Shown here: piece after piece, positions 7,421-32,174 of the stretch
Numbering within the stretch: the stretch's first letter is position 1
Layout of the letters: each line of letters begins with the position of its first letter
Origin: Bacillota bacterium
GTDB lineage: Bacteria; Bacillota; DSM-12270; Thermacetogeniales; Thermacetogeniaceae
DNA length: 32,174 bases
Direction: 5' to 3'
Assembly: GCA_029907475.1 (NCBI GenBank)
Contig: JARYLU010000032.1
Coordinates: 1 to 32,174 of the forward strand
Position numbers and translations under genes: made by a program
Notes under the pieces: model-generated
Told to the model about the DNA's origin: nothing
Databases searched by the model: none
Seen by the model: only the letters and a program-made list of their open reading frames with translations

Positions 7421-8461
7421 TCATGACACCAACTGTTTTATTTTCCGTGCAAGACGCGGTGCCATCACATCAATGCTATAGTGTTCTTCCACAATACGTC
7501 GCCCGACCATTCCCATCTTTTCTCGTTCCCTATCGTCCAACGACAACATCGTAAGCAGTGCATCTTCCCATTCGTCCCGCGATTTTGCCGCAAAGCCAAC
7601 ATTCCCCAGTGATAACACTTGAGCATTCATTCCGACTGGTGAGACCACAACCGGTATGCCACAAGCCATGTATTGGAGCATCTTATAACTACATTTACCT
7701 CTTTCCCATTCAGTGTCGGCAAGTGGCATGATGCCAACGGTCATAGTTTGCACACTTGGAACTTCTGTTTCTGGGGACCATTGGACAAATTCGAATCTTT
7801 CCTTGGGCACTCCTCGGAACTTGGGTTCCTTATCGGCGATCACACGAAAAACTACATTTGGTAATGTTTTTATAACCTTCTCTAGAGCCCCTTCGATTTG
7901 ATATAAATATTTGAAATTCCCGCTGGTCCCTGTCCATCCAATCACGAGCTTATCCTGTGAGTTGCGATTCTGGGCTCTTGGTGTATAACGTCGTGTATCT
8001 ATGGCCGTTGGAATAACGGTAATATTTTTATTCCATTGAGAAAAATGTTCTGCAAGGAAGTCATTACCACAAATAATCAAATCCGATAATTGAGCTAACC
8101 GTTTTGCAAATCTTCCACCCCGGTGCAAAAAAATTGCATCATCCACATCTAGCACACGTGGACGTTTGGCCAGGGGCTCAAGAGTCAGAAAGGTAGAAAT
8201 CAGCTCTCGTTGAAGAAATACGACATCGTAACGATGTGTCGCCAGCACAGCGGGAACGCGCGCGGCGAGAGCTGCGACACCCCAAAATGGGCGAAGCCAT
8301 TTCAATTCGGGCGGATACTTGGATATAGAAGGAATAAATTCGTGCATCTCCACTCCGTACCGTGATAATGCTGGGATCAGCTGTCGCACTCGAAAGCGAG
8401 CAGAAGGCACATGTTCTCCTCCTGTTAGTGCAGCAACCTTTATCGCCTGCCGCACATTCAT
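7421..8461 (-). CDS. GT4-like glycosyltransferase
   Basis: A 346-residue GT-B-type protein. The N-terminus MNVRQAIKVAALTGGEHVPS is followed by ARFRVRQLIPAL, as in glycosyltransferases that act late in surface-glycan loci. The C-terminal domain has LVIGWTGTSGNFKYL, GIMPLADTEWERGKCSYKML and ACGIPVVVSPVGMN, which fit a nucleotide-sugar-binding domain in which the usual E-x7-E is replaced by W-E-R-G-K-C-S-Y-K-M-L. This variant is seen in the GT1_Gtf-like group. Its ATG overlaps the stop of the polymerase pseudogene by 4 bases (ATGA), showing tight operon coupling. Confidence 0.82.
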   Translation of the reverse strand: MNVRQAIKVAALTGGEHVPSARFRVRQLIPALSRYGVEMHEFIPSISKYPPELKWLRPFWGVAALAARVPAVLATHRYDVVFLQRELISTFLTLEPLAKRPRVLDVDDAIFLHRGGRFAKRLAQLSDLIICGNDFLAEHFSQWNKNITVIPTAIDTRRYTPRAQNRNSQDKLVIGWTGTSGNFKYLYQIEGALEKVIKTLPNVVFRVIADKEPKFRGVPKERFEFVQWSPETEVPSVQTMTVGIMPLADTEWERGKCSYKMLQYMACGIPVVVSPVGMNAQVLSLGNVGFAAKSRDEWEDALLTMLSLDDREREKMGMVGRRIVEEHYSIDVMAPRLARKIKQLVS

Positions 8462-9759
8462 GATACAGCCTCCCTGAAAGCACTTTGGCGGTCTGAGACA
8501 TGTGCCGCATACCGCTTTAAAGCACCGGATACCTTCCTTGACAGTTGCCCAACGATCAGGGTATATAGTAGCAAGAAAATTGGAGTGTTTTGATAATAAT
8601 ACGCAAAGAACGAAATAAAAAGTCCATAGGAAAAAAGAGCACTAGATAAATATAGAATCCAATTGCCGCGTTTGCGAGCCGCTATGTACAGTCTGGTAGA
8701 GATAAAACCCAAGAGAAAGCAAATCAAGATAGACCCTAACCAACCAAAATCCCAGTAGACCTCACCTATGAGAGAGTAAGTATTGAAACCACTTGCTCCA
8801 ATGTTTACGAAAGGAAGGTACTGCGGAATCCTTTCCATGATTCCCAAACCACCGGGACCCAGAATCTTCCAAATAGGTAGTAATGTACCCTGCCCCTAGT
8901 GTGCTTGCAGCGGCGGATTTTCCATGACCAAGGTCATGGCAGACCAAGGACCAACTATGTAGAGATATGGCTTCTCTAAAAAAGAAAATACAGGTGGAAA
9001 CTTAGACCCAGGAAACTGACGGGGAGCAAACACATCAATGAAATGATCATACAAAGCCATAAATCCGACAAGACAAACAGCGAGGAACGCCAAGTACTTT
9101 ACTCGTACCCGTCCAGGGTTGGCCGCTGACCATACCAGCAGTGACGTTGCCAACCCTATAACCAGATAAGTCTTTATGCCACATAGCGACATGGTAAAGA
9201 CATTGCTCAGCAAGAAGAATACCGAGGGAAATGTAACCTTACGTCTTGCCAAGGTAAGTAAAACAAAGGTCGGTGGAACCAAAGCACTTGAAACAAGCAA
9301 ATAACCCAGGCGATAAGGAAATACGTATTCTCCTTGTAGCATCCATGGGTTTGACAGCCATCCAGGTGGCACTATAACCGTCACATAGTAGATCCAGCCG
9401 GCTATTCCAATGGAAGCGGTAAGATAATAAAATAAACCGATCCCCTTGGATGCTTTCACGCACCTGCTAAAAACATCCTGCCCGATTAATTGCCTCCCTT
9501 TTAAAGCAAAGAACGGTGATGCCATCAACACCCCGACAAAAAACGAGAACAAAGATGCCGCAATTAAAGCGTAGGCTTGGGCGCTAACAGGGGTTAACGG
9601 AAGAAGATTGAGTTGGTAAAGCGAAAGCGAAGCTAAATTAATTCCAATGAATATCCCCATGGGGGCAAAGTAGTCTCCGTATACTAACCGAGAAAAACGG
9701 AAGCTTGTATAAGATAACACCCCAAGTGATATAAATCCCAAAAAATTGATAACGCTCAT
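8458..9759 (-). pseudogene. Wzy-like O-antigen/oligosaccharide polymerase interrupted by an in-frame TAG
   Basis: Two open stretches in exactly the same frame (8896-9759 and 8458-8895) are separated only by a TAG at 8896-8898. Read through, they make one polytopic membrane protein of about 433 residues with roughly ten or more hydrophobic segments. Such proteins polymerise lipid-linked repeat units on the outer face of the membrane. The residues around the stop (ENPPLQAH, stop, GQGTLLPIWKILGP) read smoothly, as if a Leu or Gln codon became TAG. The downstream part has an internal ATG (MERIPQYLPFVNIGASGFN), but it is not a natural start for this family. Either a nonsense mutation or a base-call error is likely. 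Confidence 0.75.
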
Positions 9760-9762
9760 TTC

Positions 9763-9951
9763 TTATGCCACTTTCCTTTTATCTCTCAAATATACTAACC
9801 ATCCCACCGGTAAGGCAATTATATAGATTCCGCTGAAAAAGTCAGCCAAAAAGTTCCTCGAAAATGCATATAAATCAAGGGATTCCGGCTCCTGTGGCGA
9901 ATTGTTTAAGGAGAAGAAAACAAAACAAACGCACAGGAGGAAATCCCTATA
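9763..9951 (-). pseudogene. C-terminal tail of a membrane protein cut by an insertion element
   Basis: The frame ends ...FLADFFSGIYIIALPVGWLV then YLRDKRKVA and TAA at 9763-9765, a hydrophobic helix followed by a basic cytoplasmic tail. Upstream it includes FLLCVCFVFFSLNNSPQEPE and is then broken at the inverted repeat of the element at 9952. The open frame continues into the element, but that part is not native. A membrane protein between polymerase and ligase genes could be a flippase or another polymerase; this is not provable from about 60 residues. No matching N-terminal part was found beyond the element. Confidence 0.5.
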
Positions 9952-11423
9952 TTGATCATGGTTCGACGCAAAAGCCCAGTTTCCTGCGGGGGTGAAAAAT
10001 AATGTTGCGCCTCCGGCAGGAAGAGAGCAGACAAATATCACTGGTGGATTTACTGCTGCCGCCCGAGGTGCTCGAGTTCCCGAAAGATCTGGCCAAACTG
10101 GACGCCTGGCTGGATGATGAGTGTTTCTTCACACCGTTTCGGGACAAATACCATCAGTGCTTGGGGCGGCTCTCCGTACCGGCGGAAACCTACTTGCGAG
10201 TCAAGCGCTCAAGCACCAGTACGGGAAAGCCGCGGCACCTTTGCGCCCTGGTCAACGACCGGAAAAGCTTTTGCCGTTTCTGCCGGATTCCCTGGCACAA
10301 GCCGGTGCCCCATCCCAGCAGTCTGTCCAAGATCCGGCAGCGGCTGGATGCCGGCGGCAGTCACCACATGGCCGAGTTAAACGCCCACCTCGTTCGCAAG
10401 GCGCAGGAAGAAAAGCTTTTAATGAGCCGCAACAAAGTGCGGGTGGACACCACCGTGGTTGAGGCGAACATCCACCATCCCACCGATTCCGGCTTGGTTG
10501 CAGAAACAGTGCGGGTGGTGACACGCCTGGCGAAACAGGCCCAGGCTGCTGTTGGTGAGGTGGGAACAACTGTCCGGGACCGCACGCGCAGCATCAAAAA
10601 ACGGGTGCTGGCGATCACCAAAGTACTGAAGCGGCGCACGCAAGAGGCGGTAGAGGAAGTGCATCGGATCACCGGCGAAATGGCCGACATCGCGGAAAAG
10701 ACCCTTATTAAGGCCGCCCGGGGAGTAGTGCAGCACCTTCGCCGGGAAGCCCAAAATCTGGCCAACACAGTACAGGCAAGACAACAGCGCCTTGCGGCAC
10801 AGCTGGAAAGAGCCCTTGCCCTGGGAGAACAGGTAATCAAACAGGCGCGGCAGGTAAACGCCGGTCAGCGAAAACTACCGCAGCGCCTGGTGAGCATTTT
10901 CGACCTGGAGGCCCGGCCCATCAAACGCGGCAAGGCACACCGGGAAACCGAGTTCGGCTACAAAGTACGGCTGACGGAAAGTGCAGAGCGGCTGGTGACC
11001 GAGTACGGCGTGATGATGGGCAACCCTCCGGATAGATACTCGTCCCCGGGGTCACGGAGCACATTCGCCGTACCGGGCGAGTGCCCCAATGCGCTGCTAC
11101 CGACCGGGGATTCTGGGCTCCGGCAGGCGATTCGCGCTTTAAAGGAAATGGGTGTGCAAAAAGTCAGCCTGCCCTTTAAAGGCAAACGCAGCCGCCGGCG
11201 CTACTCCACACGAGCGCCAGCCCTGGTTCCGTCGGCTTCAGCGCTGGCGGGCCGGTCAAGGAGGAACAATCAGTGAGCTGAAGAGGCGCTACGGACTCGA
11301 CCGGACACTTTACCGGGGATTGGACGGCTGCCGGCGCTGGGTGGGCGGAGCCATCTGGGGATACAACCTGAACCGGGTAGCCAAGCTGATCTAAGCCAGG
11401 TGGCAGTGCCAAACCATGATCAA
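9952..11423 (+). mobile_element. Insertion sequence with 12-bp perfect terminal inverted repeats
   Basis: TTGATCATGGTT at 9952-9963 is the exact reverse complement of AACCATGATCAA at 11412-11423. The roughly 1.47-kb interval between them holds a single decayed DDE transposase gene. The flanking bases (CCTATA on the left, GTTATC on the right) do not show a clear target duplication, which agrees with an old copy or a later deletion. Confidence 0.75.
10002..11394 (+). pseudogene. DDE transposase (ISNCY-like), multiply frameshifted
   Basis: The frame from 10002 starts MLRLRQEESRQISLVDLLLP and carries the first catalytic Asp in VRVDTTVVEANIHHPTDSG (about residue 147). The middle insert is long and basic. 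Around 11030-11130 the expected sequence, including the second Asp in AATDRGFWAPA, lies in another frame. The last part, including the Glu in ISELKRRYGLDRTLYRGLDG and the ending VGGAIWGYNLNRVAKLI, lies in a third frame ending at 11394. A local shift also places LKHQYGK out of frame near 10205-10230. At least three to four indels therefore make it non-functional. I place it in the ISNCY/IS1182-like group from motif order, not from a search. Confidence 0.75.
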
Positions 11424-11566
11424 GTTATCAAGGAGCAACCTACAGACTTATAGAAGAGTAATCAGGAAATTGCTTTTTTTTAGCAGAATCTAGTTAAGGT
11501 CTCTTCGTTTTCCTTACTTTACTTCCTTCCCAGTTTCCCTCGCTCGCTCTTGCTAAACACTGCGAA

Positions 11567-11668
11567 TTATCCAGCCACGATACAGAAGTTAGGATAGGTC
11601 AGTTGCTGTACCGACTCAAGGCATTCAACAGTGTCCCGCCAGACATAGTAGAGGATGAAGATAAGCAC
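11567..11668 (-). pseudogene. N-terminal fragment of a GT2 glycosyltransferase
   Basis: In frame, the minus strand gives [20 protein letters not shown] followed by QQLTYPNFCIVAG and a TAA at 11567-11569. The part [17 protein letters not shown] matches the start of GT2 (GT-A fold) rhamnosyltransferase-like proteins, where WNGWxDTxECLxSLxxLxYP precedes the DNGS motif. The fragment ends before DNGS and its first residues look replaced. A second, similar fragment lies on the other side of the ligase gene at 13145-13291. Confidence 0.6.
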
Positions 11669-11679
11669 TTAGAACAAAC

Positions 11680-12966
11680 CTATAAGTATGTTCTCCCAGT
11701 CCTTGATGGGATTTTTTCCTTTAATTCGCCAGGCTCCTTTTGAGCCCGGCCAACAAGGAAGCGGCAGGCTAGAGAAAAACCAAGGTATGCCCAAAGGTAG
11801 AATCCAATCTCGTCACTTAACGTGCCAACCATAACCAGGTAACTTGCGAATCCCGCGAACATCGAGGAAGTAACTAGCCTCATCGCTTCCTGACTGTTCC
11901 GCATTGAAAATTGGAAAGCTCGAAGGAAGTTGTAGGTAATATAACTGACCAAAAAAATCAGGAACGTAAAGAGCAGTAAGCCTCCTTGAAGTAAAGTTTT
12001 CAGGTATAAGTTGTGAATGCTCATGTAATAACCTGTTAGCGACCAGACGATATTTCTCAGGTCAAGAATTCCAAGTCCAATGAGAGGATTATCTGCTATG
12101 ACCAGCATACCTGCACGCCATAATTCTAATCGAATTATGAGGTTAGAAGGATCGAGCCGTTGTAACTTACCAAATCCTGCCAGGAACTGCTCAAGCCAAC
12201 CTAAGGCAGAGGCTATAGCGAGGACGGTCACTGTCACCGATGTAACGCCAAAAGCAAGCCCCCACTTGCGCTTCCCGGGCTCGAGTACGAGCAAAATCAT
12301 AAGCAAAACAAAGGTTGCTATCCAACCGCTACGTGAGTAAGTAAATACAAGAGCGAGGATTGTTAACGTCAAGCTACTGAAATATACAAAACGCGCTAGC
12401 CGTCCTTTTACAATGCGTGCAAGCGCAGTGCCTAAGGCCAGAGAAAATAGCAAAGGTAACATTGCGTAATTAGCATCAGGTTCTGACAGTGTGGTAAGTC
12501 TCGCGTATTCTTTGTGCCAGGCAAGCCAGTAATCTGTATGAATAATGGGCTCACCCAAATAAAAGAACTGAATTAAGCCAGCAACTGGACCAGTGACGAT
12601 CGAAACCCAGTAGAGACCTTTTAAAATAGCTACTAGTTGTATATCATTCCTGACGCATCCCGTGAGGTACATTGCTGCGGCAACATATGGCAAAGCACCC
12701 TGCCCGAACTTAATATCCACCGCCTCGGGGCCAAGTGCCGTTACGATCGCAATGATGCACATGTATGCTAAAAACCAAATGAAAACCACCAAAAATATTT
12801 TGCGAATGCCTCTTGCCGAAGCTAAACTAATAATTGCTACGGCGAACAGCATTAGCATCGCTGCTTTCACAAAAGAATAATAAGCCACCTGTCGTGGAAA
12901 AACAAAATACAGGCCAAAGCCCAAAATTCCAAAGACGACGTTAAGCAGTTGGCCGAAGTTGTTCAT
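11680..12966 (-). CDS. O-antigen ligase / Wzy-like polymerase membrane protein
   Basis: A 428-residue protein with about twelve hydrophobic segments, beginning MNNFGQLLNVVFGILGFGLY. It has the Wzy_C-type signature: a cytoplasm-near TYSRSGWIA after about residue 208, then a large outer loop containing LIGLGILDLRNIVWS and SIHNLYLKTLLQGGLL, where the His-Asn pair is the usual ligase mark. It either attaches finished glycan to its carrier or polymerises repeat units. The 5' 220 bases and upstream DNA occur a second time, decayed, at 16249-16470. GT2 N-terminal fragments lie on both sides. Confidence 0.85.
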   Translation of the reverse strand: MNNFGQLLNVVFGILGFGLYFVFPRQVAYYSFVKAAMLMLFAVAIISLASARGIRKIFLVVFIWFLAYMCIIAIVTALGPEAVDIKFGQGALPYVAAAMYLTGCVRNDIQLVAILKGLYWVSIVTGPVAGLIQFFYLGEPIIHTDYWLAWHKEYARLTTLSEPDANYAMLPLLFSLALGTALARIVKGRLARFVYFSSLTLTILALVFTYSRSGWIATFVLLMILLVLEPGKRKWGLAFGVTSVTVTVLAIASALGWLEQFLAGFGKLQRLDPSNLIIRLELWRAGMLVIADNPLIGLGILDLRNIVWSLTGYYMSIHNLYLKTLLQGGLLLFTFLIFLVSYITYNFLRAFQFSMRNSQEAMRLVTSSMFAGFASYLVMVGTLSDEIGFYLWAYLGFSLACRFLVGRAQKEPGELKEKIPSRTGRTYL

Positions 12967-13144
12967 GAGAAAACGCTTCGAAACTATGTAACCTGCGGAA
13001 CTCAGGTTACTTGCACCTCCAGAATCATTAAATGAAGAAACCTCTAGACCTCAAAGGTTAAAATTCGTTTGTCAGTAATACCAGCTACCAAACTTAATTA
13101 CACCTCTAAAGCTGAATTCCAATATTTGACAATATTCCCACAAG
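12741..13144. repeat. Segmental duplication, copy A
   Basis: These 404 bases (start of the ligase gene, its upstream spacer and 13 codons of another gene's tail) match 16249-16641 almost base for base over long stretches, for example GCGAATGCCTCTTGCCGAAG in both. Homology stops abruptly after CCCACAAG at 13144/16641. Both copies are in the same orientation. Confidence 0.92.
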
Positions 13145-13291
13145 CCTTTCGGTCTTGGGATATGTCAGCCGCTGCACCAACTCCAGGCACTCAACGGTGT
13201 CCCGCCAGCCGTTCCAGTTTAGAATGATGATTGCTACCTCGGAGCGGGATTGGATTTCACTGACAACGGTAACTTCTGAAGGTGTAGACAT
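13106..13291 (-). pseudogene. Chimeric remnant: GT2 N-terminus joined to another gene's C-terminus
   Basis: Sixty-one codons: [20 protein letters not shown] leads into [20 protein letters not shown], the first strand and loop of a GT2 enzyme, and then RLTYPKTE runs in frame into [13 protein letters not shown]. The last 12 residues match the C-terminus LVGILASIGIRL of the putative transferase at 16603-17895. The join at about 13145 is exactly the edge of the duplicated segment, so this is a recombination product and not a real small protein. The GT2 catalytic DxD region is absent. Confidence 0.75.
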
Positions 13292-13484
13292 ATCAGTACC
13301 TTCCCACCTTTAACCAGTGTACCTGAATTCAAGATCGGTCCTTCGGTTTTATATAGCTGACTTCAGCTTTTAACTGGCCACCGCCGCACTAATATACGTC
13401 CAGAAAAGAATTAATTGTAAACCGGGTTAATATGCAAAGCAAAAATGCTATAGCCCTTTCTTAATTCTATGTTTAGTTCGGGCT

Positions 13485-14774
13485 TCACTTGGAGCTGCCT
13501 TCAGCCCCTATTATCTGGGATCCAGCCGTTAAAAGCTTGTTCAAAAGTTCAACATCGAAGCCGCCACCTGCTAACAGTCCACCCAATCGAGCAGCCAGTT
13601 TATAATGTTTCATTTGGTCTGGTAAATCTGCCGGCTTTTGTAACGAGAGGAATTCTTCCAGCATTCGAATGGCACGATCCCAAGAAAAGCTTTTTGCAGT
13701 CTCGATTCCCGCCAAGGCTAATCGCGTGCATAAGTCCGGGTTGTTAATCAGACGTAGCAACGCTTCAGCCGTGCGTTGGTGATCGCGAGGCGGAACCACT
13801 AAAGCATTCAGTCCATCAAGAGCGTAGTCCTCCACCCCATAGCATGTAGTTACCACAGCCGTCCCACAAGCCATAGCCTCAAGAGGAGGTAATGGAAAAC
13901 TTTCATACCATGAAGGACACAAAACCGCATGAACACTCGCATATAGGTTGGCCAAGTCCTTACCGAAGACTGTGCCTAAGAATTTGTACGGCACACCCGC
14001 CACCTTTGCCCCGGGGTCACCAAAACCAAAAAGAATCCACTCGACCGCGTCAGACGATATAGCCCGCGTGACCAGTTTCATAGCTGCTACAGCGTCGTCA
14101 AAACCTTTCCAGATGCGCCCAGGGTCTACATAGGTCAAAATCCGGAAAGGCCGAAGCTGGCCACTATACTTCCTGCGTACAAAAGATTCGCTGCCACTAA
14201 ACACGTTTGTATCGATACCAGGATTCAAGATAAGGTTAGGTCGCTTATTAGTTAACGCCGCAACCCAATTATTCAACCATTTGGAATTGGCGACCTGCTC
14301 AAATGGCAAGAAGTAACTGAGGCGGGCTATTTTTCTTCCGAGTTCGCTGATAAAAAAAAGCTCTTCCATATGTTGCATGTGATATATCCAACGTGAAGCA
14401 GGAAGATAGTAACCCGCAAATGCAGTCCAGCAAAAACTAGCTATGATCACATCATTGCTTTTTGGCGAATTTTTTAGAAGAGCACGAATCATACGAGTGG
14501 CCCTGACTATATCCTCTAAGCCATCGGCAACTGTAACCCTAGCAACACCTCTGACAATAAGCTTGCCTAAGTTAACTATCGAACGTCGCAAAAAAGGTTT
14601 TTGAGATGCGCGCTTAGTAAGCTGGTGCCAGCAACCTGGAGACCACTCAAATCTGCCTTCTGGCGCAACTGCCGTAATGTCATGGCCTCTCGAAGCTAAT
14701 CCATCCATAAAGTGGTACAAAACAATATTCCCGCCTGAACGCCCTAGACCAGGCAAAAGGTATGTAATCTTCAA
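13485..14774 (-). CDS. GT4 family glycosyltransferase
   Basis: A 429-residue GT-B enzyme. The TTG start at 14774 is supported by AAGGAG ten bases upstream and gives MKITYLLPGLGRSGGNIVLY, the typical glycine-rich first loop. The donor domain shows RILTYVDPGRIWKGFDDAV, FLGTVFGKDLANLYASVHAV and CPSWYESFPLPPLEAMACGT, with E-x7-E. The C-terminal 50 residues beyond the usual domain end (DLPDQMKHYKLAARLGGLLA onward) are extra and of unknown role. It lies between the ligase gene and UDP-galactopyranose mutase. Confidence 0.87.
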   Translation of the reverse strand: MKITYLLPGLGRSGGNIVLYHFMDGLASRGHDITAVAPEGRFEWSPGCWHQLTKRASQKPFLRRSIVNLGKLIVRGVARVTVADGLEDIVRATRMIRALLKNSPKSNDVIIASFCWTAFAGYYLPASRWIYHMQHMEELFFISELGRKIARLSYFLPFEQVANSKWLNNWVAALTNKRPNLILNPGIDTNVFSGSESFVRRKYSGQLRPFRILTYVDPGRIWKGFDDAVAAMKLVTRAISSDAVEWILFGFGDPGAKVAGVPYKFLGTVFGKDLANLYASVHAVLCPSWYESFPLPPLEAMACGTAVVTTCYGVEDYALDGLNALVVPPRDHQRTAEALLRLINNPDLCTRLALAGIETAKSFSWDRAIRMLEEFLSLQKPADLPDQMKHYKLAARLGGLLAGGGFDVELLNKLLTAGSQIIGAEGSSK

Positions 14775-14887
14775 AAATTATCACTCCTTAGTTCAAAGGC
14801 CAAATAGATATTTGTCAATATCTCAATCCTAGTTATTGCGGTTGTACATTACCATCAGCGCCGCAATGGTTTGGCCGTCCACTTGTA

Positions 14888-16003
14888 TCATTCTTCGGTC
14901 CCCCTGATGATCTCCTCAAATACTTCAAGCGCGCGTGCAACAGCTTCGTCCATGTTGTAATAGCGGTACTCCGCCAGCCGGCCCACAAAATAGACACCCT
15001 TAAGTTTTCTCGCTTCGCTCTCGTACCGGTAGTAAAGCTCCCTGGTTTCATCAGAGAGCACAGGGTAGCAGGGATCTCCTTCGTCTGTGGGATACTCGTA
15101 CACAACTGCGGTCTGTGGGAGGACCTGCCCGGTTAAGTGCTTAAACTCGGTAATCCGGGTAAAGTCGAATTCGTTCGGGTAGTTGACGGTGCCCACCTCC
15201 TGAAACCATTCCCGCTCCAGAATTGCAAACTCAAACCGCAGACTGCGATAGGGCAGCTTGCCGTGCACATAATCAAAGAAAGCGTCTATGGGGCCGGTGT
15301 AAACCATACGGCTGAACTTTACTTCATTTTCAATTTCCCGGTAGTCGGTATTCAAAAGCACCTTAATGTTCGGGTGGGCCAGCATGAGGCGGAATAACTG
15401 GTTGTACCCCGGCACGGGCATAGCCTGGTACCTGTCCCGAAAGTAACGGTCATCCCTGCTGACGTAAACCGGAACCCGCCCGGTAACCGAAGGATCGAGT
15501 TCCTCCGGCTTTAATCCCCACTGTTTGAGCGTGTAGCCGTAGAAGATCTTCTCGTATATGTAGTCAGCCAAAAAGCGCAGGTCCCTTTTTTCGCTCTCCC
15601 GCAGTCTGAGAATAGGAACCCTGGCTCTAAAGCCGTACTCATCGATAAGGGCCGCCTCCAGCCGCGCGGCCTGGCCGGGGGGGAAAAGAGCGTACAGAGA
15701 ATTCAGGTTGAAAGGCACCGGGACCTTTTTCCCGTCGACCACCGCCAGTACCCGGTGGTAGTAAGGACGCCACCGGGTAAAGTAAGAAAGATAGTCCCAC
15801 ACGTGCTTTAAATTCGTGTGAAAGATGTGCGGCCCGTACCTGTGCACCAGAACGCCGTGTTCGTCATATTCATCATAGGCGTTACCGCCAACATGGTCGC
15901 GCTTTTCCACCACCAATACTTTTTGGCCCAATTGAGTGGCGATCCGTTCCGCCAGGGTAACCCCGGCAAAACCCGCGCCGATGATGAGCCAATCTACCTT
16001 CAC
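14888..16003 (-). CDS. glf: UDP-galactopyranose mutase
   Basis: A 371-residue FAD enzyme that converts UDP-galactopyranose to UDP-galactofuranose in the cytoplasm; the length is typical. The N-terminal dinucleotide fold is WLIIGAGFAGVTLAERIA, followed by VVEKRDHVGGNAYDEYDEHG and YGPHIFHTN, a mutase hallmark. Later marks are YTLKQWGLKPEELDPSV, RVPVYVSRDDRYFRDRYQAM and P-VPGYNQLF. The GTG start is preceded by AAAGGAG ten bases upstream. It predicts galactofuranose in the surface glycan made by this locus. Confidence 0.95.
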   Translation of the reverse strand: MKVDWLIIGAGFAGVTLAERIATQLGQKVLVVEKRDHVGGNAYDEYDEHGVLVHRYGPHIFHTNLKHVWDYLSYFTRWRPYYHRVLAVVDGKKVPVPFNLNSLYALFPPGQAARLEAALIDEYGFRARVPILRLRESEKRDLRFLADYIYEKIFYGYTLKQWGLKPEELDPSVTGRVPVYVSRDDRYFRDRYQAMPVPGYNQLFRLMLAHPNIKVLLNTDYREIENEVKFSRMVYTGPIDAFFDYVHGKLPYRSLRFEFAILEREWFQEVGTVNYPNEFDFTRITEFKHLTGQVLPQTAVVYEYPTDEGDPCYPVLSDETRELYYRYESEARKLKGVYFVGRLAEYRYYNMDEAVARALEVFEEIIRGTEE

Positions 16004-16056
16004 GATAATTTCTCCTTTCGCAGTACATCTTTAAAAGAGAATTCTCAGTGTTTTCT

Positions 16057-16212
16057 CTAAAAAACTAACTTGGCAAAAATCCCGGAAACAATTCCTTTCA
16101 AAGCTGCAGCAGCACGCTGCCATTCACCTGTGAAGATCCTGCGACCCGCCAGGAGTAATTGAAAGAATACGGCTATCGCGGACGACCGGAGTAATAGCAC
16201 CGCTTTATCCAG
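16057..16212 (-). pseudogene. C-terminal remnant of a GT2 glycosyltransferase
   Basis: One minus-strand frame reads LDKAVLLLRSSAIAVFFQLL, then LAGRRIFTGEWQRAAAALKG and IVSGIFAKLVF with TAG at 16057-16059. A hydrophobic helix followed by a basic amphipathic R-A-A-A-A-L-K-G stretch is the usual tail of membrane-attached GT2 enzymes. The frame is broken upstream by a stop and a shift near 16213. It may be the other end of the gene whose N-terminal pieces lie at 11567 and 13145. Confidence 0.5.
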
Positions 16213-16248
16213 AGGGAACTACGCCTGGCGTAATATCCCACTAAAGGG

Positions 16249-16470
16249 TTACGACCGCAATGATGCTCATGTAAGCTAAAAACCAAACAAAAACTGCCAA
16301 CAATACTTTGCGAATGCCTCTTGCCGAAGCTAAACTAATAATTGCTACGGCGAACAGCATTAGCATCGCTGCTTTATAATAAGCCAACTCTCGTGGAAAA
16401 ACAAAATACAGGCCAAAGCCTAAAATTCCAAAGACGTTAAACGGTTGGCCAAAGTTGTTGTATGAGAAAA
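16249..16470 (-). pseudogene. Decayed second copy of the ligase N-terminus
   Basis: Nearly identical to the first 220 bases of the ligase gene at 11680-12966, including CTTGCCGAAGCTAAACTAAT. Relative to that gene the start codon region reads TTGTATGAG instead of TTCATGAG, so the ATG is gone, and several bases are deleted (11 fewer over the segment). It stops at 16249, where the DNA switches to the GT2 remnant. Confidence 0.8.
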
Positions 16471-16641
16471 CGCTTCCAGACTCTGTAACCTACGTAATTC
16501 AGGCTGCTTGCACCTCCACAATCATTAAACGACGAAACCCCTAGACCTTAAAGGTTAAAACCCGTTTGTCAGTAATACCAAGTACCAAACTTAATTACAC
16601 CTTTAAAGCCGAATTCCAATACTTGCCAATATTCCCACAAG
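16249..16641. repeat. Segmental duplication, copy B
   Basis: A 393-base direct copy of 12741-13144. It includes the ligase remnant, the spacer with AGTACCAAACTTAATTACAC and the last 13 codons of the gene at 16603-17895, which appears to be the original context of that tail. Confidence 0.92.
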
Positions 16642-17895
16642 ACTCTTAGCCGGGTCTGCGGACGTTTCAATGCAACTCTCCGTGACGGTCCGAGGTTGTA
16701 GTTTTCCCTGTATAAATTGTTCCAGGATGGCGCTTACTTCCCTTTCTTCACTATCCACGGTGTAACATAAACCTATTTCCTCGAAATTGTCGGCTGGAAT
16801 TTCCGGCGTGTGCACCTGGACCGCAATTTTTTCGTAAAGTGAAGCCTCCACCAGGGCGGTGGAACTGATGCTAAAGAACAGTTCAGCGTCTTCCAACAAC
16901 TGCCACAAAGGAACCTTCGGCGAGATGATATCAATATCGCGTAAAATATCCCTTAAAAACGAAACATCTTCGCGTGGATGCGGCCGGTAAACCAACCGCA
17001 TCCCAGATTTCCGGCATGCACTTACTAGAGTTGTAACTACGTTCCTTTTACCGAATACCAAGGCTGGACTGTATTTTTCGAAGTCCTGGCCTAGAAAACA
17101 TACCTGTAACTTTCGTGATTCACCATTTTTAAATACTTTTCCGGATGACTTTCGAGGAAGGAAAAAAGGGTAACCAAGCACGAGCACTCGCCCCTCATCC
17201 AAACCTTGCGCAACGTAAAGTTCTTTGAAGTACTTACCCCAAACGGCAAAGTAGTCGGCAAAACTATCCCAATAGTTAGCCAGCCAGGCACGCTGAAATA
17301 TGCCGTGCTGTATGGCCAGTGATGGAATCCCTCCCATTCGTGCCGCCAGCACAACCACTCTCTCAAATGGCTGTCCGTCATTCCACAATATTACCGCCTT
17401 CGGCCTTACACGCAGGAGGTCGCGATAGACGCTGTCTATGGCCGCCTGGACCAGTGCGTTGCAGTCTTGCTGCGAGGCCGCTGCGTAAGCGCTGGCTATA
17501 AGCGATATTGCCTGGTTTGCCACAAGATAAGGAATACGCTTCTGCAGGCAAAATCGCCTATCGTTTTTACCGTGAACGAAAACGCGTACCCTTGTGTCAC
17601 GGTGAACACGAGCAATCAGCTCTGCAAACTTCGTACCTGGCGCGCCCACAAAGACCACATCGGCTGCCTGATCCCACATCTTATCCTGAACAGCATCGAC
17701 TATAGCGAGTATGGGCCTGTAAAGAAGGAACTTAGCCGTCACATTGCGCAAATTTGCCAGAACAAGGTCGTGATGAACCGAGAAGCCATCCTCGGTGAGG
17801 TTGTGCAGGATGCCGAATACCTGTTTCGCAAGGTCCATTGCTTCACTGTCCTCACTTTTTCGTTTTTTAGAGAAACCTAACACAGGTCTTCCCAC
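16603..17895 (-). CDS. Putative nonulosonic-acid glycosyltransferase (GT-B-like, capsule-type)
   Basis: A 430-residue protein not firmly assigned. The C-terminal half has CFLGQDFEKYSPALVFG, GMRLVYRPHPREDVSFLRDI and LFFSISSTALVEASLYEKIA, which resemble the donor-site H-P-R-E and S-S-T-A-L-x-E-A motifs of polysialyltransferase and capsule-polysaccharide transferase families. The middle has AVILWNDGQPFERVVVLAAR and IPSLAIQHGIFQRAW. It overlaps the NeuB-like gene by 19 bases, so the likely role is transfer of the CMP-activated nonulosonic acid. The GTG start at 17895 is the longest choice; an ATG at 17838 with AGGA upstream is possible. The last 12 residues are shared with the chimeric fragment at 13106. 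Confidence 0.6.
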   Translation of the reverse strand: MGRPVLGFSKKRKSEDSEAMDLAKQVFGILHNLTEDGFSVHHDLVLANLRNVTAKFLLYRPILAIVDAVQDKMWDQAADVVFVGAPGTKFAELIARVHRDTRVRVFVHGKNDRRFCLQKRIPYLVANQAISLIASAYAAASQQDCNALVQAAIDSVYRDLLRVRPKAVILWNDGQPFERVVVLAARMGGIPSLAIQHGIFQRAWLANYWDSFADYFAVWGKYFKELYVAQGLDEGRVLVLGYPFFLPRKSSGKVFKNGESRKLQVCFLGQDFEKYSPALVFGKRNVVTTLVSACRKSGMRLVYRPHPREDVSFLRDILRDIDIISPKVPLWQLLEDAELFFSISSTALVEASLYEKIAVQVHTPEIPADNFEEIGLCYTVDSEEREVSAILEQFIQGKLQPRTVTESCIETSADPAKSLVGILASIGIRL

Positions 17896-18968
17896 CTGAG
17901 CACCGAGTCCTCAGCAATATCACGCCGCGCCTTGCGGCCACAGACAACATCTATAAACTCCGGGGGAATACCAGTGCCCGGCCTTTTTATGCCCAGCATT
18001 TCTTCGGTTATAACCTGTCCACTCGGAATTTCCCGCACAGCCACCAGGCTCCTGCGCGCGTACGTCCTGGCGGGTTGCTCGCACGGCAATACGTCCTTTG
18101 TATCAGAGCCGTGCAGCACCCTCACCATTTCCACGTTCTCCACGAAGGTTCGTAAATCCGCGGAGTCCATGGCGTGATAATGATCGTTCCCCGGTAGTTT
18201 CTTATCGAGAGTAAAATGCTTTTCAATAATCCGTGCTCCTTGCAAAAAGGCCAGCGTGAGAACAAGCATCCTGGGATCAGACGGACAGTGGTCTGAATAC
18301 CCGACAATGCATCCTGGAAAGGTCCGTGCCAGATGTGCGATCATCCCTAAATTTGCGTCCTCATACCTAGTTGGATAGGAAAGAACGCAGTGCAGGAGGC
18401 CGATGTGTTCGCACCCTTCTTCCCGTAACCATTCTACTGCGCGGGCAATTTCGCTCAACCGCGCCGCACCGGTCGACAAGAGTACGGGCCTTCGCTGACG
18501 GGCAACAAATCTGAGATGCGGTTTGTTTGTTATGTCCGCAGAAGCTACTTTAAACGCAGGAACCAGGGGGGCGAGCGCCAACACGGCGTCGGTATCAAAA
18601 GGGGTACAAAGAAACTCGATCCCTCTCTTTTTGCACTCCTCAGCCAGGAACGCATAATCGTCGTAAGAAAGCTTATCGTACTTCTTGAATAACTCATACT
18701 GGGAAGCTACCCGCTCTTTCCCGGTGTCCCAGTATGCCACGGCCTCTTTTACAGCAAGGGTGTCTGCTTTGTACGCCTGAAACTTAACCGCATGGGCACC
18801 GGCCCTGGCTGCTTCATCGATCATCAATGTTGCGGCTTCGAGCAGAGATATTCCGTTTTTATCTGCCACCTCATAGTAATTAACGCCTATCTCGGCGATG
18901 ATGTATGGACCGGTCTCGCTTTCTTTTCTTTGAAAAAGTTCTGCAAGCTTTATTCTGTTCTCTATCAT
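17877..18968 (-). CDS. neuB: NeuB-family nonulosonic acid synthase
   Basis: A 363-residue enzyme of family length that condenses phosphoenolpyruvate with a six-carbon amino sugar to give a nine-carbon sialic-acid-like sugar. The TIM-barrel part has YIIAEIGVNYYEVADKNGIS, GAHAVKFQAYKADTLA, IEFLCTPFDTDAVLAL, VPAFKVASADITNKPHL and IIEKHFTLDKKLPGNDHYHA. The C-terminal SAF (antifreeze-like) domain is ARRSLVAVREIPSGQVITEE and GIKRPGTGIPPEFIDVVCGR. Whether the product is neuraminic, legionaminic or pseudaminic acid cannot be settled here; the PseG-like domain in the next gene favours pseudaminic- or legionaminic-type chemistry. It overlaps that gene by 4 bases. Confidence 0.9.
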   Translation of the reverse strand: MIENRIKLAELFQRKESETGPYIIAEIGVNYYEVADKNGISLLEAATLMIDEAARAGAHAVKFQAYKADTLAVKEAVAYWDTGKERVASQYELFKKYDKLSYDDYAFLAEECKKRGIEFLCTPFDTDAVLALAPLVPAFKVASADITNKPHLRFVARQRRPVLLSTGAARLSEIARAVEWLREEGCEHIGLLHCVLSYPTRYEDANLGMIAHLARTFPGCIVGYSDHCPSDPRMLVLTLAFLQGARIIEKHFTLDKKLPGNDHYHAMDSADLRTFVENVEMVRVLHGSDTKDVLPCEQPARTYARRSLVAVREIPSGQVITEEMLGIKRPGTGIPPEFIDVVCGRKARRDIAEDSVLRWEDLC

Positions 18969-20665
18969 TTGACCACATACACCCCTTCCAGAATGAGTCC
19001 CAGTACTCTTTCAATTCCTTTTCTTAAGTCGAGCGCAATTGGCCGCAGCTCTTCATGCATGCGACGGCGCTGCTCATAGTCGTTCACCAATGCTGCGATG
19101 GTGCTGGCGATTTGCTCAGGGCCAATTTCGGCAGACAAACCAATATTAATAACACCGGGACTAATTCGAGAAAACAAGTGCGAGGTTTCCCTAACGTTCT
19201 GCGAGATGGTTACCGTCGGTACGGCCACGGCCACCGCCTCGTATACGGTCCGGCCATTTGAGCAGATAACAAGGTCTGCCTCGCGTAAGAGGGGCGCCAT
19301 CAGCTGCACATCCTGCAAGACCTCTACCTCAAATCCCTTGGCTCGCAGGGTTTGCACATAAGCTAGTAGCTGTTCGATGGGAGCGTACCCGAGACCAACA
19401 ACTACCTTCACCCGAATATCTCGTAGGTCAGCCTTTTCAATTGCCTTGAGAACCTTGGCAGTAGTGTTACCTGGATCGGTACCGCCAAACGTGATGACCA
19501 TTTCCTTAACGTTAGGTGACACACCCTGCTTAGGTGCTACGAAGTAACAGTCTTCTCGCAAGCATTCGTACTTGTACCCGTAGTACTGGTTTGTCGACAA
19601 ACCACTCCACTCATATAACGCGTTAATCACTATATCAGCCAATCGCGCACCTTGCCCAAGGTCCTCGAAGTTGACCACCCGGCACCCAAGTGATTTCAAA
19701 GTGGCTATGTATGTAGTCTCAGTATCCAAAATGTCATTAATCACTATATCCGGGGCATACTTCCTAAGAAGATCAAACAGTTCATCATCACTGGTAAATG
19801 TGCGCACTGGCAAACATTCGCTTTCTACTTTTTTAACGCCAAGAGGCTTTTGGGCATCCATGAAAAACATGACTTCGTGGTTCCACAAGCGCTTGGCCAG
19901 GGTCAGCATCCGGTAGACGTGGCCTAAGCCCATGTTACGATCGCCATCCGTCCTTATGGCAATTCTTTTACGCTTCAGGCACGCCTCCACAAGCACAAGA
20001 TCGTGCCAGTTGTCCACATCGATGTTCTCAGGGAAGTCGAGTGGGTATATCTCGACAGCAACTCCGAATCTTTTGCCCTCGTCCAGTACGTGCCGTCGGG
20101 ATATGACAAATCCGCCTGTTTCTCTGTAAAGCGGTTCCAACCATTGCCTGTTACGGCGTTCTTTGCAAAGTGGTAACAAGGAATCACCAGCCTTTTGCCA
20201 GTAGATGTGAGATTCCAGTGAAACACTAATTAATGTGTCCGCTTCCCCCACGAAGAATTGTCTGATGGCACGAACCAGGGTAGCACCACGAAGCAACGGT
20301 GAAGTGGGCTGTAACGTAACAACTGTGTCAAACTTAACTTGCCGCATGCCTTCGACAGTGTGGACGGCATGACAGACCACCGGATCAAGTGGTACATGGT
20401 CTTCCGACAGGTAAGCAGGCCGTATCAAAGTATTTACTCCAAAAAGTCGACCAATCTCCAAAATTGCTTGGTCATCACTGGAAACAAAAACATCAACCTC
20501 GGCAATCGCTTCCTGCTCAAGCTCGTGCTTTGCTTGTAACGCCGCTTCGATGGAAAAAGCCAGCAACGGTTTGTTGTTAATAAGGAGTAAGTTTTTCCTT
20601 GGAATACTTTTACTCCCGCCGCGGGCAGGAATAATTACTAATATATGTTTTCTAGGGTGCTCCAA
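18965..20665 (-). CDS. CMP-nonulosonate synthetase fused to a PseG-like UDP-sugar hydrolase
   Basis: About 566 residues. The N-terminal part (about 1-230) is a CMP-sialate synthetase: HILVIIPARGGSKSIPRKNL, VDVFVSSDDQAILEIG, VVTLQPTSPLLRGATLV and FPENIDVDNWHDLVLVEACL. The C-terminal part (about 235 to the end) is a GT-B-like PseG hydrolase: RIAIRTDGDRNMGLGHVYRM, MVITFGGTDPGNTTAKVLKA and LREADLVICSNGRTVYEAVA. One chain thus provides the steps just before and after NeuB. The start is the TTG at 20665, because AGGAGAGGAG lies 11 bases upstream; a longer frame begins with a TTG at 20701 inside which that ribosome site sits. It overlaps neuB by 4 bases, so production is coupled. Confidence 0.88.
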   Translation of the reverse strand: MEHPRKHILVIIPARGGSKSIPRKNLLLINNKPLLAFSIEAALQAKHELEQEAIAEVDVFVSSDDQAILEIGRLFGVNTLIRPAYLSEDHVPLDPVVCHAVHTVEGMRQVKFDTVVTLQPTSPLLRGATLVRAIRQFFVGEADTLISVSLESHIYWQKAGDSLLPLCKERRNRQWLEPLYRETGGFVISRRHVLDEGKRFGVAVEIYPLDFPENIDVDNWHDLVLVEACLKRKRIAIRTDGDRNMGLGHVYRMLTLAKRLWNHEVMFFMDAQKPLGVKKVESECLPVRTFTSDDELFDLLRKYAPDIVINDILDTETTYIATLKSLGCRVVNFEDLGQGARLADIVINALYEWSGLSTNQYYGYKYECLREDCYFVAPKQGVSPNVKEMVITFGGTDPGNTTAKVLKAIEKADLRDIRVKVVVGLGYAPIEQLLAYVQTLRAKGFEVEVLQDVQLMAPLLREADLVICSNGRTVYEAVAVAVPTVTISQNVRETSHLFSRISPGVINIGLSAEIGPEQIASTIAALVNDYEQRRRMHEELRPIALDLRKGIERVLGLILEGVYVVK

Positions 20666-20717
20666 CTTACCTAATTCTCCTCTCCTCGCATTACTACGCA
20701 AAGGTGCTACTGCTGAT

Positions 20718-25594: not shown

Positions 25595-27519
25595 ATGGGC
25601 AAGGGAAAAATTAAAGTAAATTACAAAATATCCCGGCTGGTTGATCGTTTTTATAAAGGCAAAGTTGTCCCTTTCATCGGAGCCGGAGTTTCGAGAAACG
25701 CAGTACACAAAGATGGTAGAACAGGGGTTGCTGATACTAGGCGCATGATCAGTTTAATTGCCTGTAAATTATTGGACTTGCGGCTGCAAGGTAAAGAACA
25801 AAAACAATGGGCTAAATGGTGCTGCTCTTTCCTGGAATGCGAAAAACAGCATCAAAACCAGCATCAGGGTGTATGTAACAACAAAAAATGTCTGCTCAAA
25901 GAACTCAGCAATAATTCCGAAGGCGACAAGTATCTAAAAAAATACGTCACTCTGGATAAACTTTGCGAAATGTATACATGGGTAGCCGGGACGAACGCCC
26001 CGCGATCTTTAGTGGAAGATGTTTTAGTAATCCAGGATTTCAGCGAACTACAGCCGACCATCGCTCACAGATACATCTCGTTTCTTGCACGGGAGGGCTT
26101 AATAGACGAGGTTATCACCACGAATTATGACTGTTGCCTGGAAGAAGCATATAATTCAACCTTTATCAATGGTTCTGAGAACGCCGCCCTGGTTATAACC
26201 GATCTTGAAGAATACAGGAGAGATTCAGGAAAATTTTTCATTAAAGAAGACATACGGTGTCTCAAGATTTATAAAATTAACGGGTGTGCGGCCAAACTAA
26301 AACAAAAAAATTTCCGCCGGAAAAAATCCTTCTTACGGAACGCCAGTTACAGGAATGGGGGGACCGCCACTGGGCGCGGGATCTATTTCGCGACTGCCTG
26401 CGCTCGCGCACCCTCATATTCTCCGGTTTTGGCAGTGATGAGCCCCAGGTAAGACATACTGTCCTGCAAATTGAAGAAGAATTTCAAAATTCGGAATGTA
26501 GCAACGGAAGGAGGCCCGGTAGCCGCCAAGCAAAACAAAGATCCTGCTGGGATCTGCCAAACGCCCCTTTCATAGCCGCGTATGAATGCAACCTCACCTT
26601 TAACCAGGTGCAAATTCTTCATTCTTACGCCATTGCACATAACGATTCCCTGGCTTACTGCAATATCCACAAAAATGTATTTACGGGGGCTGATGCCAAA
26701 GATCTCGATCCAGGAATCAAAGATAGTTGTTTGTCAGCTGACGTATTTTGGGAAAAAGTATACCAGGCAGCTTTTTGGCAGCTGTTTAAAAAATGCTGTA
26801 GACTGGATACTCCGTTTTATGCTTACCTCTCTTCTTGCATTCACCCTGTAGACGCCCTGCTATCCGACTTTACTAACTGGGTCGCCCCCGCCAAAGCACC
26901 CTTCGGGCGTTTCCCGGAACTGCTTTCACTAGATAACCATTTACATGTAACTACATTAACGAAATGGATAAACTGCATCAGGTACAGCAGAACATACTGC
27001 AACCCGGGGGCCTACCTGCCATTGCTAGAAAAGCCCGTACTGCTTCCCCTGGTTCTTTTAATCCTCCTTTTCGTTGCCGGTAATAGAAGGAAATGGGAAG
27101 AAATAAACAGGATGGTGTGTATTGAGAATAACCTTTTCATCCTGAAAATCTTCGCGGACCTGCCGGTTTTTATTGTTCACGATACAAGCGTGCTGCAAAA
27201 AGCTCTTGGAAATAAAAATGTTTTGCTTAACAACAACATCAGCATTGGAATCGTTGTCAGCTCTAAATCAGTAGAACGAGCGGAAATTATCCACCAAAAA
27301 GTCGATCTCCAGGAATCAAATAGTGCCCGGGAACTCAATATGAAAAAGAGGGTTACTATTTACAAAATCCCTTTTAGAGACATCTTCTGCTGGGATTCCA
27401 AAGTACCATCGAGCGTTGATGCAACAAGAGAAAAGTTCTTCGCATCGTTGAGAGCGGCTAAACTTATTGCGGCCAATGCTCGCCGCAGGATCAGGGGGCG
27501 GGCAAAGAAAATCTTATAG
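25595..27519 (+). CDS. SIR2-domain effector of a conflict system, two frames joined at an A-run
   Basis: Two overlapping frames make one continuous protein of about 641 residues if the ribosome slips -1 at 26305-26311. The first part (from 25595) has VVPFIGAGVSRNAVHKDGRT, the NAD-binding GAGxS, and EGLIDEVITTNYDCCLEEAY, the TTNYD motif of SIR2-like domains. The second part (in frame before 27519) has ILLTERQLQEWGDRHWARDL and TLIFSGFGSDEPQVRHTVLQ, the end of the same domain. About 350 further residues have no recognised motif. SIR2 effectors in phage defence deplete NAD. The expected K-x-H-G reads IYKINGCAAK, with Asn for the catalytic His. Without slippage the first frame would end at 26452 with about 50 unrelated residues. 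It could instead be a pseudogene or a base-call error. Confidence 0.75.
26304..26311 (+). other. Possible -1 frameshift site, A-AAA-AAT
   Basis: A run of seven A (26304-26310) followed by TTT. In the reading frame of the upstream part the bases 26305-26311 form A AAA AAT, the X XXY YYZ pattern, and a -1 slip at this heptamer joins the SIR2 halves exactly. A short TTTCC-GCC-GGAAA hairpin starts right at the site, too close to act as a usual stimulator, and no upstream ribosome-site-like stimulator is seen. RNA-polymerase slippage on A7 is another option. Confidence 0.5.
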
Positions 27520-27532
27520 CAGGGTGATCACT

Positions 27533-28204
27533 TTGTATGAGGATATCGTAATCGAATCCAAAGTAATTGCCAACTGGCGGCTTAAGCTTGATAAGAACAC
27601 AAAAAACAGGCTTGTATCCTCACTACTAGAAAGAGACGAAAAACTCCTGGCCGTCAGTGAGGTTTACCTTACCGATGTGGCGCTCGCCGTGCACTTTACC
27701 GCAAAACTAGCAACTCAGAAGCTTCATGAAAGCATTTCTGAAATTAAAAAAGCGATTGCCGGGATTCTGCGATTGCTAAGCGGTTATGCAGAGCAGCAAG
27801 GAGTGATAGTACCGGTAATAGGAGTTATTTCTCCCGTTGAAGGCATGGATGAAGAAAACCTGGAAAACGAAGTAGCCATGTGGGCGGCAGATCAGGACTG
27901 GCATCGCGGCGATTTTTCCCTGTTTTATGCTCCAAGCGGTGATGAGACAAAGGTTATCTACTCTCTGCTATCCGGCGCAACCGCCCTCTGGACAGAGTCG
28001 GATAAAATAAAACAACTTGAATCAAAGGTATATCTCAAAATGTTGAAAAACACATACAGGTTTGAAAAATCAACTGACGAACACCGGGAGTTAATGAATA
28101 CAATAATCCAATCCTGGGAAACTGGCAACCCTATTAAAGACGCAATATTAGAGTGGACTGCTGAGTCGCTCTCAGAAATCGACAAAATTACCGGAGAAAA
28201 ATGA
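27533..28204 (+). CDS. Middle component of the SIR2-ATPase system (LmuC-like candidate)
   Basis: About 223 residues, of unknown fold, beginning at a TTG (LYEDIVIESKVIANWRLKLD). The start is chosen because GGTGATC, a perfect match to the 16S rRNA tail, lies just before it; a GTG at 27524 or an ATG at 27467 inside the upstream gene are alternatives. The protein is mostly helical with SVEVYLTDVALAVHFTAKLA-like amphipathic stretches and a central QGVIVPVIGVISPVEGMDEE segment. It starts within 15 bases of the SIR2 stop and ends 46 bases before the ATPase start, so the three genes form an operon. Its position matches the middle protein of ABC-three-component and Lamassu type II systems; this role is inferred from context only. 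Confidence 0.6.
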   Translation: MYEDIVIESKVIANWRLKLDKNTKNRLVSSLLERDEKLLAVSEVYLTDVALAVHFTAKLATQKLHESISEIKKAIAGILRLLSGYAEQQGVIVPVIGVISPVEGMDEENLENEVAMWAADQDWHRGDFSLFYAPSGDETKVIYSLLSGATALWTESDKIKQLESKVYLKMLKNTYRFEKSTDEHRELMNTIIQSWETGNPIKDAILEWTAESLSEIDKITGEK

Positions 28205-28250
28205 ATAAAGCAAGAACGAACAGGTGTTTTACACGGGGGGAGAGGGGAAC

Positions 28251-31703: not shown

Positions 31704-32117
31704 TCAGCTTTCCCGGGTGGTGCCTGCTGCGGGAGCGCCGGGGAAAACCACCTCGACGCTGGGGAAGTCCTTAACATTCGAGGTTGCCACCTTAAGTCCC
31801 TTTAGCTCGGCAGTCGCTGCGATGAGGCAGTCGGCCATTCCCAGCGTCCTCCCTTGCGCGGCCTGGTCGCGGCGGATTTCCGCGGCGCGCCTCGCAACCT
31901 CGCGGTCTACGGAGAGCACATTCCACGCCTTCAGCAGTTCCTCGACGGCGGTCCGCGCCTTTTCAGTGCGCGCCCCGTACAGGAGCTCGTGGTAGACGAT
32001 CACGCTGGTGGCTGCCAGCCCGGAAGCGACTACGTGTTCCAGCCAGGCGGAGGCATCGGGAGGCAGCCTGTCGGTTAAGTGGTCGATCAGGATGCAGGTG
32101 TCAATCAGGAAGGCCAT
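31704..32117 (-). CDS. vapC: PIN-domain toxin, VapC family
   Basis: A 137-residue protein from the chosen ATG at 32117; a longer frame begins 14 codons upstream. The start MAFLIDTCILIDHLTDRLPP gives the first acidic residue in LIDTCILIDH. Then SVIVYHELLYGARTEKARTA holds the conserved Glu, GRTLGMADCLIAATAELKGL holds the third acidic residue, and LKVATSNVKDFPSVEV holds the last one in the usual N-x-x-D-F position. These four form the metal site of VapC ribonucleases. The ATG overlaps the end of the preceding antitoxin frame by 11 bases. The sequence beyond VVFPGAPAAG is slightly longer than usual. Confidence 0.88.
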   Translation of the reverse strand: MAFLIDTCILIDHLTDRLPPDASAWLEHVVASGLAATSVIVYHELLYGARTEKARTAVEELLKAWNVLSVDREVARRAAEIRRDQAAQGRTLGMADCLIAATAELKGLKVATSNVKDFPSVEVVFPGAPAAGTTRES

Positions 32118-32174
32118 CGCGGCGCCCTGCTCTCCTCTCCGCGTACCTTTCGCACCCACTCCGCCGCCGGGGCT
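32105..32174 (-). CDS. VapB-like antitoxin, C-terminal end only (cut by the window)
   Basis: The frame entering the window at its right edge reads APAAEWVRKVRGEESRAPRW then PS and TGA at 32105-32107. It is on the same strand as the toxin, just before it, and overlaps its start, which is the normal antitoxin-toxin order. Only 22 residues are visible, so its family cannot be named from sequence. Confidence 0.5.
   Translation of the reverse strand, partial: APAAEWVRKVRGEESRAPRWPS

What the first reader, a model, noticed from the sequence alone, without database searches (positions are those of the whole stretch)
12741..16641. Direct segmental duplication of about 400 bp inside the glycan locus
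12741-13144 and 16249-16641 share long identical stretches covering a ligase start, its spacer and the tail of a transferase gene. Only copy A has an intact gene. The copies flank GT4 and glf, so recombination between them could delete or amplify a 3.5-kb block and change the surface glycan.
Basis: seen in the sequence. Interest (0 to 1): 0.55.

Follow-up and report, generated by a model that had tools for sequence, protein, structure and literature searches.

The report
Old duplication scar in sugar-coat locus
A 400-base stretch really occurs twice inside this bacterium's surface-sugar gene cluster, but the two copies have drifted about a tenth apart and look like a scar of an old rearrangement that put two sugar genes between two neighbours, not like a working genetic switch.

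Summary
In detail: 12740-13147 and 16248-16644 are diverged direct repeats (358 identities, 38 mismatches, 13 gap columns; E 1e-144), the only two copies found in the genome. Each copy is the junction "end of transferase T, spacer, start of a Wzy_C gene" on the minus strand. Copy A borders the intact Wzy_C gene, copy B the intact T gene; the inner halves are fragments. Between them lie glf (only GLF match of the genome), a GT4 gene and a GT2 remnant. A second GT2 scrap and a multi-copy IS lie beyond Wzy_C.

Most likely this is a decayed relic of an old duplication or insertion that left a glf-GT4(-GT2) cassette between T and Wzy_C. Deletion of 3.5 kb by recombination is possible, but about 12% divergence in the spacer argues against frequent exchange, and the loss would be one-way. 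No relative with the ancestral junction was found. The "ligase" is more likely a polymerase, as LpxC was not found. An ordinary kind of event; low interest.

The parts
12740..13147 (-). Repeat copy A: start of the intact Wzy_C gene (12740-12966), spacer (12967-13105), 13-residue tail and stop of T (13106-13147)
   Evidence: alignment, segment identities
16248..16644 (-). Repeat copy B: about 75 codons of Wzy_C without a start codon, spacer, end of the intact T gene
   Evidence: protein-level match of 84% over residues 2-78 with one TAG
11680..12966 (-). Intact Wzy_C-domain membrane protein (polysaccharide polymerase or ligase)
   Evidence: ORF; PF04932 E 5.7e-19
16603..17895 (-). T: putative glycosyltransferase, weakly like the surface carbohydrate biosynthesis family
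   Evidence: ORF; TIGR04396 E 2.6e-8, below its cut-off
14888..16003 (-). glf, UDP-galactopyranose mutase, inside the flanked block
   Evidence: TIGR00031 440 bits, above cut-off; only GLF match in the genome
13485..14774 (-). GT4 glycosyltransferase inside the flanked block
   Evidence: PF13692 E 3.4e-22; best phylum match (region L053) lies next to a glf
13148..13291 (-). N-terminal remnant of a GT2 glycosyltransferase, running in frame into the T tail of copy A (61-aa ORF 13106-13291)
   Evidence: translation; 7 of 10 plasmid records hit are annotated glycosyltransferase family 2 and 1 glycosyltransferase, weak E-values; no Pfam match
11585..11665 (-). Second GT2 remnant, just after the end of Wzy_C; shares a 54-bp stretch at 83% with the first
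16004..16247 (.). Stretch of unknown origin between the Wzy_C fragment and glf; no other copy in the genome
9824..11497 (+). Insertion sequence with a split transposase ORF; its ends recur at the ends of other contigs
   Evidence: DUF772 transposase domain

Best explanation
The repeats are the two ends of an old rearrangement scar. Shown: a T-spacer-Wzy_C junction exists twice, in direct orientation, with an intact gene on the outer side of each copy and a fragment on the inner side, and a glf-GT4-(GT2 remnant) block sits between. Inferred: T and Wzy_C were once neighbours; a duplication or a recombination with a related locus doubled the junction and left the glf-GT4-GT2 cassette between the copies; the inner fragments and GT2 then decayed. 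Today copy B's fragment has no start codon and copy A's T tail lacks the rest of T, so the repeats most likely do nothing. Recombination between them could delete the block, but this would be a rare and irreversible loss, not a programmed switch.
For: Outer-intact, inner-broken gene arrangement. Divergence of 17 of 139 in the spacer and 38 of 396 overall means the copies have been separate for long or came from diverged sources. Both internal indels in the Wzy_C part are multiples of three and the substitutions fall 7, 2 and 7 on the three codon positions, weakly in favour of some divergence while still coding. Further scraps of GT2 genes and a multi-copy IS next door show a locus that is being reshuffled. 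glf-GT4-GT2 in this order also occurs in another family of the phylum (L053: glf 69%, GT4 31% identity, then a GT2 gene), so the block makes sense as a cassette.
Against: No genome with the undivided T-spacer-Wzy_C junction was found: none of 19 genus and family members matches either protein, and the phylum matches are about 20-33% identical. The direction of the event is therefore inferred. L053 was 1 of 9 regions examined, the only one with a glf match, and its GT2 gives no match to the remnant. The codon-position signal is weak and 11 of 15 changed codons alter the residue.
Confidence: 0.68

Rival explanations
1. Decayed tandem duplication: an ancestral unit T-Wzy_C-...-GT2 was duplicated in place, and each unit later lost different parts, leaving T, Wzy_C fragment, glf, GT4, GT2 remnant, then T tail, Wzy_C, GT2 scrap. 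A specific form of the best explanation.
For: The order T, Wzy_C, GT2 recurs twice in register; the second GT2 scrap shares 54 bp at 83% with the first, roughly like the main repeat.
Against: GT2 N-termini are conserved in general (recalled), so the scraps may be unrelated paralogues; no trace of a second glf or GT4 at DNA level in the window self-comparison.
Confidence: 0.3
2. Crossover with a related but diverged glycan locus (incoming DNA carrying glf-GT4-GT2 and its own T-Wzy_C junction) integrated at the junction and left a diverged direct repeat on each side. Also a specific form of the best explanation.
For: About 10% divergence including in-frame indels; cassette-like glf-GT4-GT2; T and Wzy_C are missing from 19 genus and family members, as expected of an exchangeable glycan locus.
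Against: No donor locus was found.
Confidence: 0.35
3. Active switch: homologous recombination between the repeats deletes or amplifies the glf-GT4 block in part of the population and changes the surface glycan.
For: Direct repeats of about 400 bp with a 69-bp exact run; a longest run of this size arises in 1.1% of random placements of the differences, which may hint at one past exchange. Sequence duplications in pneumococcal capsule genes are reported to cause phase variation (titles of Waite et al. 2001 and 2003 seen in a reference list).
Against: 12% divergence in the spacer; only glf of the genome inside the block, so loss is not locally reversible; no reads; the identical run could be chance or constraint.
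Confidence: 0.07
4. Assembly artefact.
For: Draft genome of 114 contigs.
Against: The copies differ at 38 bases plus indels and have different flanks, so they are not one sequence assembled twice; the IS, not the repeat, is what recurs at contig ends.
Confidence: 0.02

Closest known systems
wzy remnants and the partial wzy duplication in Salmonella O-antigen clusters (groups B1, D1, D3; passages of PMC3715488)
   Same: Fragments of a polymerase gene left beside IS elements in a glycan cluster, including a duplication of part of wzy in group D3; remnants explained there by serial deletions.
   Different: Other phylum; here the duplicated piece spans the end of a transferase, a spacer and the polymerase start, and it flanks a glf-GT4 block.
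Spontaneous sequence duplications in pneumococcal capsule genes causing phase variation (Waite et al. 2001, 2003; only titles seen, in the reference list of PMC8406281)
   Same: Duplicated DNA in a surface-glycan locus.
   Different: Those titles report duplications within a gene that control phase variation; here the copies are diverged, 3.5 kb apart, and no switching is shown.

Membership tests
Relic of segmental duplication in a glycan locus | Homologous direct copies well above chance | tested here: met
   E 1.1e-144
Relic of segmental duplication in a glycan locus | Inner gene copies broken | tested here: met
   Wzy_C fragment without start in B, 13-residue T tail in A
Relic of segmental duplication in a glycan locus | Ancestral undivided junction in a relative | tested here: inconclusive
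   no close relative found
Recombination-driven phase variation | Both forms seen in one population | not testable with these tools
   no reads, one assembly
Recombination-driven phase variation | Repeats kept nearly identical | tested here: not met
   87.5% over 409 columns
Recombination-driven phase variation | Reversible change | tested here: inconclusive
   the only GLF match of the genome lies in the block, so deletion has no local template for return; amplification could be reversible and was not tested
O-antigen ligase (WaaL) for the Wzy_C gene | Host makes lipid A / LPS | tested here: not met
   LpxC: 0 matches in the own genome while 4 of 14 control genomes ring
Mobile element (IS or MITE) for the 400-bp repeat | Many copies in the genome | tested here: not met
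   2 copies genome-wide

The most novel reading that the evidence does not exclude
The duplicated junction is a recurrent exchange point: related strains swap whole glycan cassettes such as glf-GT4-GT2 in and out between T and Wzy_C through the shared 400-bp homology, so the repeats mark a docking site for changing the surface sugar.
Probability: 0.07. Interest if true: 0.4.

Novelty: new member of a known kind. Interest (0 to 1): 0.15.

Why it matters
It records how a glycan locus was rebuilt: a UDP-galactofuranose cassette lies between two genes that were probably neighbours, with the scar still readable. It also marks a place where a single crossover would remove the only glf found. Beyond that it is an ordinary example of glycan-locus turnover.

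Tried and rejected
Looked for an undivided T-spacer-Wzy_C junction: Wzy_C and T proteins in 61 genomes (the own genome is one of them), T in the class set of 20 genomes, T in 398 and Wzy_C in 398 genomes of the phylum (own genome included in each), both in genome contigs (no relative), Wzy_C in viral contigs (none) and plasmids (none). No close relative.

Spacer as an RNA or regulatory element: no Rfam match in 11400-17000; the two spacers do not fold better than shuffles (z -0.20 and 1.03) and fold differently; promoter- and terminator-like sites are at chance level (6 found against a mean of 7.9; 8 against 7.6).

Pfam on the GT2 pieces and the Wzy_C fragment: nothing, even at E 10. That says little for such short pieces.

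Papers: six searches. PMC8406281, PMC3715488 and PMC6382021 were read as passages only; all other papers were seen as listings only. The search followed a recalled guess about the host's family; the guess was not confirmed and is not used. I make no claim that the case is absent from print.

Full report
Observation. The two intervals are homologous over their whole length. The alignment runs from 12740 to 13147 and from 16248 to 16644 with 358 identities, 38 mismatches and 13 gap columns; self-BLAST gives 87.5% over 409 columns and E 1.1e-144. No other copy was found in the genome.

Anatomy, in the direction of transcription (minus strand). First comes T, an intact gene (16603-17895) weakly like surface carbohydrate biosynthesis proteins (TIGR04396, below its cut-off). 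Its end opens copy B: spacer, then about 75 codons of a Wzy_C gene that has no ATG at the matching place and is then cut off. After 244 bases with no other copy in the genome follow glf (14888-16003; TIGR00031 above cut-off; only GLF match of the genome) and a GT4 gene (13485-14774). Then comes a GT2 N-terminus (13148-13291) that runs in frame into the T tail that opens copy A. Copy A continues with the spacer and the intact Wzy_C gene (11680-12966; PF04932). After that lie a second GT2 scrap (11585-11665) and an IS (9824-11497) whose ends recur at five other contig ends.

Identity of the scraps. The GT2 reading rests on weak protein matches: of 10 plasmid records hit, 7 are annotated glycosyltransferase family 2 and 1 glycosyltransferase, 2 have no annotation (E-values 0.02 to 7). 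Pfam gives nothing for these short pieces.

Divergence. In the Wzy_C part 16 substitutions fall 7, 2 and 7 on codon positions 1, 2 and 3, in 15 codons, 4 of them synonymous, and both internal indels (3 and 9 bases) keep the frame. This is weak evidence that some divergence arose while both copies still coded. The 69-bp identical run is longer than expected if the differences were placed at random (P 0.011, mean longest run 38); it may mark a past exchange between the copies, or chance or constraint.

Relatives. None of 19 genus and family members matches T or Wzy_C. In phylum samples 15 of 398 genomes match T and 30 of 398 match Wzy_C, the own genome included in both counts; listed identities outside the own genome are about 20-33%. 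The two scans of genome contigs found no relative. The locus is therefore strain-specific as far as these data go, and the ancestral junction was not seen.

The flanked block. The best phylum match of GT4 (region L053) lies directly after a glf that is 69% identical to the window's, and is followed by a GT2 gene, a GT4 gene and a Wzy_C gene. This was the only one of nine regions examined with a glf match. The GT2 there gives no match to the remnant, and its Wzy_C protein is only weakly similar. So glf-GT4-GT2 is a plausible cassette order, not proof of a shared origin.

Mechanism. The arrangement fits an event that doubled the T-Wzy_C junction and left a cassette between the copies, followed by decay of the inner fragments. 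Whether the doubling was a tandem duplication or a crossover with a diverged related locus cannot be told without a sister genome. Recombination today between the copies would leave T-spacer-Wzy_C and delete about 3.5 kb with the only glf found. The exact run is longer than the 25-35 bp that PMC6382021 (passages) quotes as predicted minimum for Bacillus subtilis transformation, so deletion is possible; the divergence of the copies argues that exchange is not frequent.

Naming. LpxC was not found in the genome, while 4 of 14 control genomes ring, so an LPS ligase role is unlikely and a Wzy-type polymerase is the better guess for the Wzy_C gene. That Wzy_C proteins include both roles is general knowledge.

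Known precedents. Salmonella O-antigen clusters carry wzy remnants next to IS elements and, in group D3, a duplication of part of wzy (passages of PMC3715488). The present case is of that kind.

Verdict. An ordinary scar; interest 0.15.

Noticed in passing
window 25595-30512 (+): SIR2-like ORF split over two frames (25595-26452 and 26284-27519; both match SIR2_2), a further ORF, and an SMC/AAA ATPase that best matches LmuB of PADLOC (E 1e-18): looks like a Lamassu-type defence locus with a broken SIR2 gene (the link of SIR2 with Lamassu is recalled).
   Followed up: partly
window 18965-20701 (-): One ORF matches both PseF and PseG, below their cut-offs: a fused cytidylyltransferase-hydrolase next to a NeuB/PseI-like gene, suggesting a nonulosonic acid pathway.
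   Followed up: no
window 8458-9759 (-): Two adjacent ORFs, one (8458-8847) with weak O-antigen polymerase matches and one (8896-9759) with none, may be a polymerase gene split by a frameshift or stop.
   Followed up: no
window 9824-11497: Insertion sequence with a split transposase; its ends match the ends of five other contigs, so it is probably a collapsed multi-copy element in this assembly.
   Followed up: partly
window 12988-13010: Copy A's spacer has an 8-base inverted repeat that is broken in copy B (sequence; alignment).
   Followed up: partly
window 31707-32159 (-): PIN-domain protein at the contig end, possibly a toxin of a toxin-antitoxin pair.
   Followed up: no
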